Virus record (IMG/VR): IMGVR_UViG_3300036791_000775
Location: 1 to 42,531 of that record
DNA: 42,531 nt
DNA from: a virus
Direction: 5' to 3' (one strand)
Shown here: positions 3,081-36,930 of the stretch, piece by piece
Numbering within the stretch: the first letter of the stretch is position 1
Layout of the letters: each line of letters opens with the position of its first letter
Position numbers and translations under genes: made by a program
The notes under the pieces: model-generated
The model's database searches: none
What the model was told of the DNA's origin: nothing
The model's input: the letters and a program-made list of their open reading frames with translations, nothing else

Positions 3081-3397
3081 TTCGTCTCGCCTGGGATAGA
3101 TAGATTCTGTTCCCTGCACCAATCCAGCTTCGCCCCCTGCGGACAAACCCCTTTGGCCATAGGCGGTATGCTCTTCCACACCTCAGCCCACCAGGCTTTG
3201 GTGGCCTTGCCTTCCGCTTCGGTTCGCTTCATCACATCAAGGAAATACTGAAGCTGGGCTTGCAGCATTTCAGCGCGATCGTGCTCTACTTGGAGATCAG
3301 ATGGCGGCGGCGAATCAGGGACGGCCTGCGCCCAAGCCGGCAATCCAATCCCAAGGGTTACGGCAAAGACGGGAACCGTGAGGGCGATACGGTTCAC
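3077..3397 (-). CDS. Exported protein, spanin-like position
   Basis: 106 aa from GTG 3397, which overlaps the preceding stop as GTGA. N-terminal signal peptide (MNRIALTVPVFAVTLGIGLP, cleavage near AWAQA). The mature part is charged and helical, with a probable coiled coil around residues 38-65 and two cysteines near the C-terminus (GVCPQG, WCREQ). Size, export signal and position just after a two-TM protein fit an Rz-like periplasmic lysis factor, but no specific motif proves it. Confidence 0.55.
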   Translation of the reverse strand: MNRIALTVPVFAVTLGIGLPAWAQAVPDSPPPSDLQVEHDRAEMLQAQLQYFLDVMKRTEAEGKATKAWWAEVWKSIPPMAKGVCPQGAKLDWCREQNLSIPGETK

Positions 3398-3561
3398 GAG
3401 CGTCGGCTACGGCGTTTTGAGCGAGAGGAGGATCGCGTTGGCTTGTGCGCGAAGTCCTTCAACTGTTTCTCACTCATCCCGCTATCTGTTCTCTTTCCGG
3501 CGCGCTTGCGAGCAAGTTCGGCGCCCGCCCATCGTCTCTGAGCCTCGCTCTCTGCCGGCAT
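3394..3561 (-). CDS. Small basic phage protein (DUF3008-like)
   Basis: 55 aa (MPAESEAQRRWAGAELARKR and on, then GMSEKQLKDFAHKP). The pattern SEAQRR..GAEL.RK.AGK.T..GMSE.QL.DFA matches a common small phage family of unknown function (DUF3008-like, from memory). Its ATG overlaps the preceding TGA (TGATG), and its stop overlaps the GTG of the next gene by four bases. The C-terminus is Arg/Ser-rich. Found by reading; too short for a simple ORF filter. Confidence 0.7.
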   Translation of the reverse strand: MPAESEAQRRWAGAELARKRAGKRTDSGMSEKQLKDFAHKPTRSSSRSKRRSRRS

Positions 3562-3887
3562 CAGCCAACTCCCCGTCTGAGCCAGAGGCAGATCAGAATA
3601 AACGCTCCGTACATCCCGAGGCCCGTGAGCTGCAGTGTGGTCGGCTGCTCAATTACCATAACCCAGAGCGCAAAGACAGAGCCGGCGAGAGCCAGGTCCA
3701 CCAGCGACGCAAGGGCTACCACAGTCCGCTGCGACAGCGCCCTGAGCGCCATCATCAGCATACCTGTGATTCGATCAAGGTTTTGTGACGATGGCTGCTG
3801 TACGGGCCGCGGAGGAGCTGCCTGGATCAGATCTGGAACCGGCTCGTCATCGCCGACCGGCTTGAGGCGGTTAGTCTGCGCCATCAT
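3561..3887 (-). CDS. Two-TM membrane protein, holin candidate
   Basis: 108 aa. A soluble Pro-rich N-terminus of about 40 residues is followed by two hydrophobic segments (about 54-78, VVALASLVDLALAGSVFALWV, and 84-103, LTGLGMYGAFILICLWL) and a short basic tail. Two helices with a tight turn and a basic end are usual for class II-like holins. Coupled to neighbours on both sides by ATGA and TGATG overlaps. Confidence 0.5.
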   Translation of the reverse strand: MMAQTNRLKPVGDDEPVPDLIQAAPPRPVQQPSSQNLDRITGMLMMALRALSQRTVVALASLVDLALAGSVFALWVMVIEQPTTLQLTGLGMYGAFILICLWLRRGVG

Positions 3888-10554: not shown

Positions 10555-10805
10555 AGCGGCTCGCCCGGCATCCTTGGAACGAGTTTATATTTGCGGAGCA
10601 CGCCATAGTGCCCAACTTCTCCAATCGCCTTAGAGACGGCTTCAGGAGCCTTAATGCCCATCGCCGCAAATGCAGCGGCGCGCGCACCGAACTCAGCGGC
10701 CCCCATAACCCCCTCGCCCGATGGGGCGGCCTCGTAAGCGCCATAGAAAGCCTCTATGATCTCATCAAGTAAAGCATCATCGATGATCGGATCATCTTCG
10801 CTCAT
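10551..10805 (-). CDS. Small acidic protein of unknown function
   Basis: 84 aa, acidic at the N-terminus (MSEDDPIIDDALLDEIIEAF), Ala-rich in the middle. No motif recognised. ATGA overlaps on both sides place it in the same operon as the zinc ribbon and the 168-aa protein upstream. Confidence 0.65.
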   Translation of the reverse strand: MSEDDPIIDDALLDEIIEAFYGAYEAAPSGEGVMGAAEFGARAAAFAAMGIKAPEAVSKAIGEVGHYGVLRKYKLVPRMPGEPL

Positions 10806-11308
10806 AGGATCAAACTCACCTCGATGTCCTCGTGCGCCGCGAGACTTCGGGCGATTTCATTCGACACGCAGTCGGAATTCCTATCGATAATGTATCGGCT
10901 CGCCCCGAGACTTTTGGCCCATTTCCCTGTGTCTCGGTAAATCGCAAACCCCTCCCGATCGTATTTGTGCTCTTTCGGTTCCTCTAGGAACAGGAACACT
11001 TCCTCTGCGATCGGGAGCGCGTCGAGTTCCGTTCGGACAATCCGGCTGAGCCCGACTCCGTGAGGGGTCTTCGCGAGATAGTGCGAGTTCGATCCGATCC
11101 ATGCCCGCAACCGGCCGGAGAACGTCGCATGTGACAGATGCGGCCACTTTGCGGCGAGGCGATCCACCAGCCATTGCCCGCGAGGCGACATCGCATCGAC
11201 CAACAAAAACCTGGACACCAGAATGACCGACGATTGCGTTGGTTCACTTAATGATTCCGATTCCCTATTTCGCCTAGGGTACGGTTGATGCCCAACTGCA
11301 AATGGCAT
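10802..11308 (-). CDS. Protein of unknown function, first gene left of the pentamer array
   Basis: 168 aa from ATG 11308, which has AAGGG 7 nt upstream. A downstream ATG at 11191 (MSPRGQWLVDRLAAKWPHLS) would give 129 aa and begins with the more protein-like sequence. The middle (ATFSGRLRAWIGSNSHYLAK) and the end (ASRYIIDRNSDCVSNEIARS) are mixed alpha/beta. Not recognised. It diverges from the 213-aa gene; the upstream pentamer array lies in the shared intergenic region. Confidence 0.6.
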   Translation of the reverse strand: MPFAVGHQPYPRRNRESESLSEPTQSSVILVSRFLLVDAMSPRGQWLVDRLAAKWPHLSHATFSGRLRAWIGSNSHYLAKTPHGVGLSRIVRTELDALPIAEEVFLFLEEPKEHKYDREGFAIYRDTGKWAKSLGASRYIIDRNSDCVSNEIARSLAAHEDIEVSLIL

Positions 11309-11323
11309 AGAATGACCCTTATT

Positions 11324-11433
11324 GCGGTTCGGTACGGAAGGCTAGGGTAAGGTCGCGTCTGCTACGGCATGGTGCGGTGAATTATGGTAAGGTCCGCTCC
11401 GTTCCGGATAGGACTGGCTAGGTGAGGTAAGGC
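11324..11433 (+). repeat. Degenerate pentamer array NNGGT, 22 units
   Basis: Read in 5-nt steps from 11324: GCGGT TCGGT ACGGA AGGCT and so on to AAGGC. Position 3 is G in 20 of 22 units, position 4 is G in 17, position 5 is T in 16; positions 1 and 2 vary freely. The phase never slips. No ORF explains it, and codon periodicity would be 3, not 5. It ends two bases before a TTGACA box. A matching array in the same orientation follows the gene (12238-12387). Confidence 0.85.
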
Positions 11434-11435
11434 GC

Positions 11436-11468
11436 TTGACACGCACATGATCGTGTGCATGTCATAAC
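11436..11468 (+). promoter_or_regulatory. Sigma70-like promoter with internal palindrome
   Basis: A perfect -35 TTGACA (11436-11441) is followed by candidate -10 boxes TGTCAT (11460-11465, spacing 18) or CATAAC (11463-11468, spacing 21). Between them lies an inverted repeat GCACA-TGATCG-TGTGC (11443-11458), well placed for a repressor operator. It would drive the 213-aa gene. Confidence 0.55.
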
Positions 11469-11517
11469 ACATGGCGGCGGACACCGCTAGAGAGCGTGAC
11501 ATCGCGGACAATCGAGA

Positions 11518-11591
11518 TCCCTCGTCCCGGTGTTGCGTAACAGCAACCCCTGTTCCTTCACGTTCCGGGCGTGTCCGGCCGGGACGAGGGA
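11518..11591 (+). promoter_or_regulatory. 5' leader stem-loop covering the ribosome-binding site
   Basis: A 13-bp perfect inverted repeat, TCCCTCGTCCCGG (11518-11530) with CCGGGACGAGGGA (11579-11591), encloses 48 nt that holds a smaller hairpin (GTTGC gtaaca GCAAC). The 3' arm includes most of the SD GAGGGAG (11586-11592), which sits 10 nt before ATG 11603. Folding would hide the SD, so translation of the 213-aa protein may be controlled by RNA structure or a ligand/protein that opens it. Confidence 0.65.
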
Positions 11592-11602
11592 GATATTTAG
11601 CT

Positions 11603-12244
11603 ATGGCAAGGTCAACTACGAAAACGGCAGAAGTCATCGCGATTGGCGGCGACGTTCCGACGAACGGCGGCTCCGAGACAATCCTATCTGGCGAACCGTA
11701 TATCGCGACCGTGCGTATCACAGGCACGGCAGATTATCTGTTCCACGCGTGGAACGTCGAGGCTGTTGCGGCAAAAGCGGTGGCCGCCAAGGGCTCTAAG
11801 GCCAAAAAGAGCGACGATCTCGAAAGCTACGTCTACCGCGATGACGCAGGATTCCTAGCGATCCCTGGCGAGCAATTGCGGATGTCCATCGTCAACGCCG
11901 CGAGGTACCAGCAAGATCCGCGTTCTCCTCGCAAGTCGGCTATGGATTTGTTCAAGGCAAGCTTGGTTGTCTTGACCGCCCGGGCTCGCGTGTTGCCGAA
12001 CACGAAAGAATGGCACTACGAGCACAAGTGCAGAGTCGTTGTTCAAAGAAACGCTATCACACGCACGCGACCAGCTCTCAAAACAGGATGGTCAGTAGAA
12101 TGGGATATTCAGGTATTACAGCCTGAATACGTACCGCCCATTCTCTTGAACGATACTATCACTAAGGCAGGGATCTTCTGCTGTCTTGGCGATTTCAGAC
12201 CAACGTATGGAAGATTTCAGCTTACATCATTTTCGATCCGGTAA
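11603..12244 (+). CDS. 213-aa protein of unknown function, flanked by pentamer arrays
   Basis: Start ATG 11603 has SD GAGGGAG 10 nt upstream; the longer frame from 11471 would run through the leader stem and is rejected. N-terminus: YIATVRITGTADYLFHAWN, then an Ala/Lys stretch (AVAAKAVAAKGSKAKK), an ESYVYRDDAGFLAIPGEQLR segment, QDPRSPRKSAMDLFKASLVV, and a C-terminus GDFRPTYGRFQLTSFSI. I believe similar unnamed proteins occur in other phages, but I know of no function. The hydrophobic-PG-x-x-LR motif near the middle recalls RAMP/Cas7-type nucleic-acid-binding proteins; this is a weak, unverified resemblance. It is alone on the plus strand inside the late operon, which with the arrays suggests a separately regulated unit that binds the arrays or their RNA. 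Confidence 0.85.
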   Translation: MARSTTKTAEVIAIGGDVPTNGGSETILSGEPYIATVRITGTADYLFHAWNVEAVAAKAVAAKGSKAKKSDDLESYVYRDDAGFLAIPGEQLRMSIVNAARYQQDPRSPRKSAMDLFKASLVVLTARARVLPNTKEWHYEHKCRVVVQRNAITRTRPALKTGWSVEWDIQVLQPEYVPPILLNDTITKAGIFCCLGDFRPTYGRFQLTSFSIR

Positions 12245-12387
12245 GGCACGGCGCGCACCGGAGTGGTGCGTTGGGTTAGGCTTAGGTGAGACGCAGTGTG
12301 GTCGTGTCGGGTTGACATTGGTTCGCCAAGGCCTGCTGTGGCATGGTGTGGAGAGGTAGGGTAGGATGGGATTCGGTATGGTCGGCT
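12238..12387 (+). repeat. Degenerate pentamer array NNGGT, 30 units
   Basis: Begins in the last codons of the 213-aa gene (CCGGT) and runs to CGGCT at the stop of the convergent gene, filling the whole intergenic space. Position 3 is G in 27 of 30 units, position 4 G in 19, position 5 T in 20, with no phase slip. Same orientation as the upstream array, so it would be the 3' UTR of the 213-aa mRNA. TTGACA at 12312-12317 falls inside it by chance or as a weak -35. Confidence 0.85.
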
Positions 12388-12646
12388 ATCTCTTTCTCTT
12401 CGCCACTTCGTCGATGAGCGCACGCCGCCGCTGGGTTTGTTGGTCGATCATCCTCTTGGCGAAAATCTCAGATTGCAGCTTTGCGGGATTCGCCTTCCAT
12501 TGTTTTTCAATCTCGTCGCATTCGGGTAGCGTATAACCTGGGGAACCGGCATTTACAAAATCAACCCGGCACAACTCGTAGGCTACCTTCAATCGATCCT
12601 CCGGCGACATCTGCGCCGCGAGGATACGGGGGATGGCCCTTCTCAA
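12386..12646 (-). CDS. Small charged protein of unknown function
   Basis: 86 aa from TTG 12646, or 74 aa from ATG 12610 (MSPEDRLKVAYELCRVDFVN), the more convincing start. Helical and charged with a basic C-terminus (RRRALIDEVAKRKR). Its stop touches the end of the 30-unit pentamer array. No family recognised. Confidence 0.6.
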   Translation of the reverse strand: MRRAIPRILAAQMSPEDRLKVAYELCRVDFVNAGSPGYTLPECDEIEKQWKANPAKLQSEIFAKRMIDQQTQRRRALIDEVAKRKR

Positions 12647-12655
12647 ATCCCATAG

Positions 12656-36033: not shown

Positions 36034-36930
36034 ATGGCAGACATCTATCAAACAGTTACGGATCGGATCGTCGCTCAAATCGAGCAGGGCGCTGGCGCAC
36101 TGCGTATGCCGTGGCACTCGCGGCATGGCGCGAGTGAAATGAGCTTGCCGCACAATGTGACCGGCCGGGCATATCGCGGCGTTAACGTTCCTGTCCTATG
36201 GGCGACAGCTGCGGCATTTGGCTACGAGTCGTCGATTTGGGCGACTTACAACCAATGGCAGGAACGCGGGTGTCAGGTACGCAAGGGCGAGAAATCGGCC
36301 ATGATTGTTTTCTGGAAATCAATCGCTGTTTCGTCAAAGGGCGATGATGGCGAAGATAATGATGAAACTCGGCTGATCGCTAAGGCGTATTTCGTATTCA
36401 ACGCGGCACAGGTCGATGGATTCGACGAATCGAAGATCACCAAGGCACCGCAATCGGTTGAGGATCTTTCCGAGGATCAGCGGATAGCGTCAGCCGAGTC
36501 ATTCTTCGCAGGAACCGGCTCCGTTGTGCGGCATGGCGGAAACAAAGCGTTTTACACATCCGGCGGTGATTATGTGCAAATGCCGGAATTCGGCCAGTTT
36601 ACCGATCCGCAAGCCTACTATGCCGTGCTCGGACATGAACATGTTCATTGGACGGGAGCCAGTTCCCGGCTTGATCGGCAATTCGGAGCGCGATTTGGCG
36701 ATCAGGCTTACGCTTTCGAGGAATTGGTTGCAGAGCTCGGAGCGGCATATCTGTGCGCTGTTCTCGGGCTTGCGAATGAGCCGCGCGAGGATCATGCGTC
36801 TTATATCGCTTCATGGCTCCGGACGCTGAAAGGCGACAAAAAGGCGATCTTCACGGCCGCGAGCAAAGCACAGGCCGCTGTTGACTACCTGCAGTCGTTG
36901 CAGGCTTCCGAAACACGGTCAGCGGCATAG
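36034..36930 (+). CDS. ardC: ArdC-family antirestriction protein
   Basis: 298 aa. N-terminal ssDNA-binding domain (about 1-125) with MPWH, GRAYRGVNVPVLW, WATYNQWQERGCQVRKGEKS; C-terminal zincin-like metallopeptidase with HEHVHWTG (H201, H205) and EELVAELGAAYL as the third-ligand helix (about 229-240). ArdC of plasmid pSa protects incoming DNA against type I restriction. Complete and of normal length. Starts the rightward accessory group. Confidence 0.92.
   Translation: MADIYQTVTDRIVAQIEQGAGALRMPWHSRHGASEMSLPHNVTGRAYRGVNVPVLWATAAAFGYESSIWATYNQWQERGCQVRKGEKSAMIVFWKSIAVSSKGDDGEDNDETRLIAKAYFVFNAAQVDGFDESKITKAPQSVEDLSEDQRIASAESFFAGTGSVVRHGGNKAFYTSGGDYVQMPEFGQFTDPQAYYAVLGHEHVHWTGASSRLDRQFGARFGDQAYAFEELVAELGAAYLCAVLGLANEPREDHASYIASWLRTLKGDKKAIFTAASKAQAAVDYLQSLQASETRSAA

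What the first reader, a model, noticed from the sequence alone, without database searches (positions are those of the whole stretch)
11324..12387. Two phase-locked NNGGT pentamer arrays flanking an unknown 213-aa protein
Seen: 22 units before and 30 units after the gene, all in the same orientation, 47 of 52 with G at position 3, and no phase slip over 110 and 150 nt. This is not a codon pattern, tandem duplication (units differ) or CRISPR. Known comparison: the TRAP ring binds GAG/UAG triplets spaced by 2 nt, i.e. also a 5-nt pitch; RAMP and annealing proteins bind a fixed number of nucleotides per subunit. Inference: the 213-aa protein forms a ring or filament that binds one GGT per subunit on RNA or ssDNA, for autoregulation, protection of the genome or origin marking.
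Basis: partly seen in the sequence, partly recalled or inferred. Interest (0 to 1): 0.92.

Follow-up and report, generated by a model that had tools for sequence, protein, structure and literature searches.

The report
Phage VIPR guide-RNA cassette with target
The two strange five-letter repeat arrays and the protein between them are a recently described kind of phage weapon (VIPR), in which every repeat carries two letters of an interrupted guide; here one guide matches perfectly a gene in a sister phage, while the phage's own copy of that gene is spelled so that it escapes.

Summary
Two phase-locked pentamer arrays (22 units at 11326-11435, 30 units at 12240-12389) flank a 213-aa gene (11603-12244, +). 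They are the two strongest period-5 sites of the window and are absent from shuffles. The unit is GGY-NN. Of 104 loci of the window's clade, 99 carry such arrays on the gene's sense strand.

The protein is a RAMP. Its family profile hits one solved chain, SUSP1 Vipr (PDB 36pp, E 2.8e-12), and its predicted fold matches Csm3/Cas7 proteins. The locus is therefore a VIPR system (PMC13142463), whose RNAs read DNA by a 'skip one, read two' code. TRAP-like autoregulation and origin marking are not supported.

New here: (i) the skip-1 code is recovered independently in this clade (136 matches of at least 9/10 units, against 2, 2 and 3 for other skips). (ii) The first ten units of array 1 match 10/10 the gene next to the cassette in a sister phage (L125) that lacks the cassette. 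(iii) The window's own copy encodes the same peptide except one Ile-to-Leu change, yet matches only 5/10, because all four Ser/Arg/Leu codons are switched to their other codon family (p = 3e-4). Self-avoidance by recoding is inferred.

The parts
11285..11313 (+). Promoter-like site TTGATG-17-TAGAAT; transcript would start at about 11320, at the first unit of array 1
   Evidence: Consensus scan, 9 of 12 matches; such sites occur about once per shuffle of this region, so weak alone
11321..11435 (+). Array 1: unit 0 (ATTGC) plus 22 GGY-NN pentamers; presumed vrRNA repeat tract
   Evidence: Period-5 power 23.0 against shuffle maximum 12.8; units listed
11321..11370 (+). Guide segment, units 0-9 of array 1: GC TC AC AG AG AA CG CT AC AT
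   Evidence: 10/10 skip-1 match to L125 3462-3491
11437..11464 (+). Hairpin directly after array 1, candidate vrRNA 3' tail
   Evidence: Fold of 11436-11605, z -5.0 for the whole leader; 50 nt after the array z -2.1
11603..12244 (+). vipr gene, 213 aa RAMP protein
   Evidence: Profile hit to SUSP1 Vipr, PDB 36pp, E 2.8e-12; predicted fold matches Csm3/Cas7
12240..12389 (+). Array 2: 30 GGY-NN pentamers, starting on the vipr stop codon; no target found
   Evidence: Period-5 power 19.6 against shuffle maximum 8.9; units
10802..11308 (-). Gene A (168 aa, unknown function), neighbour of the cassette; its homologue in L125 is the guide target
   Evidence: 79.7% identity to L125 3074-3589; no Pfam or PHROG hit
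11193..11222 (-). Own site homologous to the target; same peptide except Ile/Leu, but only 5/10 units match the guide
   Evidence: Codon comparison; family switches 4 of 4 inside, 3 of 38 outside, p = 3.1e-4

Best explanation
The locus is a VIPR system carried as a cassette between two genes of a tailed phage. Array 1 (and probably array 2) is transcribed as a vrRNA. Vipr subunits line up on it, one per GGY-NN pentamer, as Cas7-type RAMPs do on crRNA. They hold GGY and display NN, so that each unit reads two bases of dsDNA and skips one. The first ten units of array 1 address codons 34-43 of gene A in a sister phage that lacks the cassette; binding there would block transcription of gene A and of genes behind it, favouring the cassette carrier in mixed infection. 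The carrier's own gene A escapes because the Ser, Arg and two Leu codons in the site are switched to their other codon family, the kind of synonymous change that alters the two read positions. Shown here: arrays, RAMP homology and predicted fold, skip-1 code in the clade, the 10/10 match, the own-site mismatch. Inferred: transcription, RNP formation, repression, benefit in competition, and selection as the cause of the recoding.
For: Arrays far above shuffles and in 99 of 104 clade loci on the gene's sense strand; GGY-NN consensus; only PDB hit is SUSP1 Vipr, E 2.8e-12; Foldseek top hits are Cas7-11, Csm3 and type VII Cas7; skip-1 gives 136 matches of at least 9/10 and 23 of 10/10 against 2/2/3 and 0/0/0 for skips 0/2/3; the one guide hit that lies in a sister phage extends to 10 contiguous units in the gene beside the cassette, in wobble register; own site matches 5/10 with 4 of 4 six-fold codons switched. 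Mechanism of homologues shown experimentally in PMC13142463.
Against: No expression data for this locus. Arrays of 22 and 30 units are longer than the 9-16 reported, so processing is unknown. Array 2 has no hairpin after it and no target; units 10-22 of array 1 have none either. No vap gene beside vipr. One sister phage only; the 5' part of gene A is generally more divergent, so recoding could partly be drift.
Confidence: 0.9

Rival explanations
1. TRAP-like autoregulation: the protein forms a ring or filament on GGY repeats of its own mRNA and controls its own expression; the NN positions mean nothing.
For: Arrays flank the gene on its sense strand, array 1 is in the leader; the leader is highly structured.
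Against: The fold is RAMP, not TRAP. NN positions carry information: skip-1 targets are found far above the other skips and for the window itself. Autoregulation as a side effect is not excluded.
Confidence: 0.04
2. The VIPR identity is right, but the L125 match and the own-site mismatch are coincidence: the real targets are elsewhere and gene A simply diverged.
For: A single target; the 5' part of gene A is more divergent, with two of the three outside switches also there; 64 other pattern hits were chance-like.
Against: Ten contiguous units (20 bases) in a sister phage of 24.7 kb, no match of at least 7/8 under skips 0, 2 or 3 in the 9.3 kb tested at that level; the only hit contig of 65 that shares other genes with the window; wobble register; 4 of 4 codon switches.
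Confidence: 0.05
3. The arrays are binding tracts for a recombination or packaging protein (ssDNA annealing filament, origin or pac marking).
For: Strict 5-nt pitch suits a filament protein; some relatives sit near a RusA-like resolvase gene (own reading).
Against: Arrays are always on the gene's sense strand and move with the gene in unrelated genomic settings; homology to Vipr, not to annealing proteins.
Confidence: 0.01

Closest known systems
VIPR systems, in particular that of Escherichia phage SUSP1 (PMC13142463; Vipr structure PDB 36pp)
   Same: RAMP protein of about 200 aa with matching profile; GGY-NN repeats beside the gene; skip-1 code; targets in other phages and in other VIPR loci
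   Different: Arrays of 22 and 30 units instead of 9-16; no vap gene adjacent; array 2 without a hairpin tail; target is the gene next to the cassette in a sister phage; own allele recoded
Cas7/Csm3 backbone of class 1 CRISPR-Cas
   Same: Predicted RAMP fold, one subunit per fixed number of guide nucleotides
   Different: 5-nt pitch with three fixed bases instead of 6-nt with one flipped; no CRISPR repeats, no cas genes; single small protein
Homing endonuclease cassettes of phages (marker exclusion), as a functional analogy
   Same: A cassette beside a gene acts against the cassette-less allele of a sister phage and spares its own
   Different: RNA-guided binding protein with no nuclease seen; no evidence of copying into the target
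TRAP (trp RNA-binding attenuation protein)
   Same: 5-nt pitch of the RNA repeats
   Different: Different fold; repeats there are (G/U)AG; no guide function

Membership tests
VIPR | Vipr protein: ancestral-type RAMP | tested here: met
   Only PDB profile hit is SUSP1 Vipr, E 2.8e-12; Foldseek top hits Cas7-11, Csm3, type VII
VIPR | Tandem GGY/NN repeats beside vipr, GGY conserved and NN free | tested here: met
VIPR | 9-16 repeats per vrRNA | tested here: inconclusive
   Arrays have 22 and 30 units; RNA ends unknown; matched guide stretches are 9-16 units and 10 in the window
VIPR | Structured 3' tail after the repeats | tested here: inconclusive
   Hairpin after array 1 and enrichment in the clade; none after array 2
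VIPR | vap accessory gene (typical, not universal) | tested here: not met
   No + strand gene beside vipr other than itself; feature is described as typical only
VIPR | 1-nt-skip target code | tested here: met
   Clade: 136 against 2, 2, 3 matches; window: 10/10 in L125
VIPR | vrRNA expression, RNP with Vipr, transcriptional repression | not testable with these tools
   Needs RNA sequencing and reporter assays
CRISPR-Cas | CRISPR repeats and cas genes | tested here: not met
   Units differ; no PADLOC hit for the protein; neighbours are phage genes without cas matches
TRAP | TRAP fold and (G/U)AG repeats | tested here: not met
   RAMP fold; GGY repeats

The most novel reading that the evidence does not exclude
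The cassette is an allelic-exclusion element: its guide addresses the neighbouring gene of the cassette-less sister allele, and the carrier protects itself by switching Ser, Arg and Leu codons between families, the kind of synonymous change that a skip-the-wobble code can see. The same footprint appears in the clade: one array (L089) reads the conserved G-loop codons of other vipr genes (at least 80% match in 31 of 89 loci) while its own vipr, with AGG/AGA arginines, matches 6/12; AGR codons are twofold enriched at these two arginines (35/146 against 134/1092, p = 2.8e-4).
Probability: 0.5. Interest if true: 0.78.

Novelty: new member of a known kind. Interest (0 to 1): 0.62.

Why it matters
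VIPR was reported in 2026 with two experimentally studied clades. This locus and its clade of more than 200 relatives confirm the skip-1 code by comparison alone, in long-array systems distant from the models. It gives a natural triplet of guide, target and own allele, and it suggests how a carrier avoids hitting itself: six-fold degenerate codons are the loophole in a code that ignores the wobble base. That can be tested with a simple reporter.

Tried and rejected
Pfam, NCBIfam and PADLOC gave no usable hit for the protein, and Rfam none for the locus. A single-protein scan of viral contigs found nothing; the pair alignment with L002 was needed; the 12-member alignment was too diverse to search with. 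A second, overlapping array phase in long arrays is explained by N = G before GG (own reading), so no staggered arrays are claimed. Five further 8-unit guide patterns of the window gave 49 viral hits without a convincing extension or kinship; L117 and L134, with 3 of 8 flanking units matching, are near the chance level. No other target of at least 7/8 was found in the 24.7-kb L125 contig. In one search the window's own site was printed one base out of register; the correct comparison is. The match of array 2 near L125 3557 (5/8) is at background.

Full report
Observation. The window has two arrays of pentamers on the + strand, 22 units at 11326-11435 and 30 units at 12240-12389, flanking a 213-aa gene at 11603-12244. 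They are the two strongest period-5 sites for G in the window (power 23.0 and 19.6; shuffle maxima 12.8 and 8.9); a segment scanner finds nothing else on either strand and nothing in 20 shuffles. The unit is GGY-NN: position 3 is a pyrimidine in 45 of 52 units and never G, and positions 4-5 are free.

Relatives. The protein matches PHROG 4652 (unknown function). The closest named homologue is in Phage DSL-LC04 (50.5%), with distant ones in Gordonia, Mycobacterium, Felixounavirus (including SUSP1), Pseudomonas and Vibrio phages. GG-period-5 arrays lie beside the gene, on its strand, in 10 of the 12 homologue loci first examined; the two Vibrio loci have a GCA-type period-5 motif instead. A scan with the window/L002 alignment gave 227 relatives in viral contigs (80 kept) and 22 in genomes. 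Of 104 clade loci (window and L002 included), 99 have arrays on the + strand, up to 118 units long.

Identity. A text search found a 2026 preprint (PMC13142463; read) describing VIPR: a phage RAMP protein, vrRNAs of 9-16 YNNGG repeats, and recognition of dsDNA by NN pairs with one skipped base. The profile of 49 relatives hits one PDB sequence only, SUSP1 Vipr (36pp, E 2.8e-12). The AlphaFold2 model (pLDDT 85.4) has Cas7-11, Csm3 and type VII Cas7 proteins as its best Foldseek matches (E 9e-7 and weaker, TM about 0.5). The window is a VIPR locus. A vap gene is absent next to it.

Test of the code in this clade. NN strings of 277 arrays (6221 units) were compared with 1.2 Mb of loci with arrays masked. 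Ten-unit matches of at least 9 units: 2, 136, 2 and 3 for skips of 0, 1, 2 and 3 bases; perfect ones 0, 23, 0, 0. The skip-1 matches come from 10 arrays and 23 guide windows (many target rows are homologous sites, so they are not independent), against 2, 2 and 2 arrays for the other skips. Matches run co-linearly over 9-16 units and tolerate non-GG units. This search space is the neighbourhood of vipr genes, so it favours targets near them. One array (L089) reads, on the antisense strand, the conserved G-loop codons of vipr (AGRL.GLADFRPTYGRF): at least 80% match in 31 of 89 loci, but 6/12 in its own vipr, which has AGG and AGA arginines there.

Target of the window. Six 8-unit patterns were scanned against 2.9 million viral contigs, giving 65 hits. 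Only one hit contig, L125, shares other genes with the window (57-95% amino-acid identity over seven ORFs). There the match lies in the homologue of gene A (10802-11308), next to the cassette, and extends to ten contiguous units, 0-9 of array 1. The read bases are codon positions 1-2 and the skipped base is the wobble. The part of L125 around the site has no vipr and no array; genes A and B abut.

Self-avoidance. The window encodes LVSRFLLVDA where L125 encodes IVSRFLLVDA. The guide demands ATx GTx AGx CGx TTx CTx CTx GTx GAx GCx. L125 fits all ten; the window has CTG GTG TCC AGG TTT TTG TTG GTC GAT GCG and fits five. Four mismatches are synonymous, Ser AGT/TCC, Arg CGC/AGG, Leu CTG/TTG and CTC/TTG; one is Ile/Leu. 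Of 42 conserved Ser/Arg/Leu codons of gene A, 7 switch family: 4 of 4 inside the site and 3 of 38 outside (p = 3.1e-4). Two of the three outside lie in the same 5' part of the gene, so locally higher divergence contributes and the p-value is optimistic. At the two G-loop arginines of the clade AGR codons are 24% against 12% elsewhere (p = 2.8e-4; related sequences are not independent). Recoding as self-protection is the reading I favour; it is an inference.

Anatomy. A promoter-like site (11285-11313) would start a transcript at about 11320, at unit 0 (such sites also occur by chance). Array 1 is followed by a strong hairpin, and the leader up to vipr is unusually structured (z -5.0). Across the clade the 50 nt after arrays are more structured than controls, but array 2 of the window lacks this.

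Mechanism, shown and inferred. Shown by sequence: arrays, RAMP homology, skip-1 code, target, own-site mismatch. Taken from the preprint for homologues: RNP formation, dsDNA binding, transcriptional repression, action against competing phages. Inferred for this locus: all of the latter, and that gene A and the genes behind it are silenced in the sister phage. What gene A does is unknown.

Verdict. A real, well-conserved feature and a new member of a very recently described kind, with a natural target and a probable self-avoidance rule that the main text of the preprint does not mention (its supplement could not be read).

Noticed in passing
L003 2432, 2553, 2662; L005 1525; L006 1672, 3005, 3123; L008 2787, 2922, 4243, 4386: Eleven tRNA-like mini-elements (T-arm with GTTCGANTC loop inside an acceptor-like stem, no D or anticodon arm) lie between VIPR arrays of Gordonia and Mycobacterium phages; they may be cut by RNase P/Z to release single vrRNAs. 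No Rfam hit; the preprint's main text names hammerhead ribozymes but no tRNA-like elements.
   Followed up: partly
L009 2810-3020 and 3600-3840; L010 near 3726-3800: Vibrio phage relatives have period-5 arrays with a GCA-type motif instead of GGY, repeated behind a common GGGGTAAAACTCAA leader in L009.
   Followed up: partly
L087 (around 1053-1900 and 3128-3720): Continuous pentamer arrays of up to 118 units, far longer than 9-16; how they are processed is unclear.
   Followed up: no
window 12615-12653 against L125 3550-3589: Sequence to the right of the cassette resembles the start of gene A of L125 (GHPPYPR), as if the 5' end of gene A had been duplicated when the cassette came in.
   Followed up: partly
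window 36034-36930 (+): ArdC-type anti-restriction protein with zincin-like metallopeptidase domain (PHROG 7245, E 1e-96).
   Followed up: no
L023, L033, L064, L065: Clade members with an intact vipr but no clear GGY array; possibly decayed or with a different motif.
   Followed up: partly
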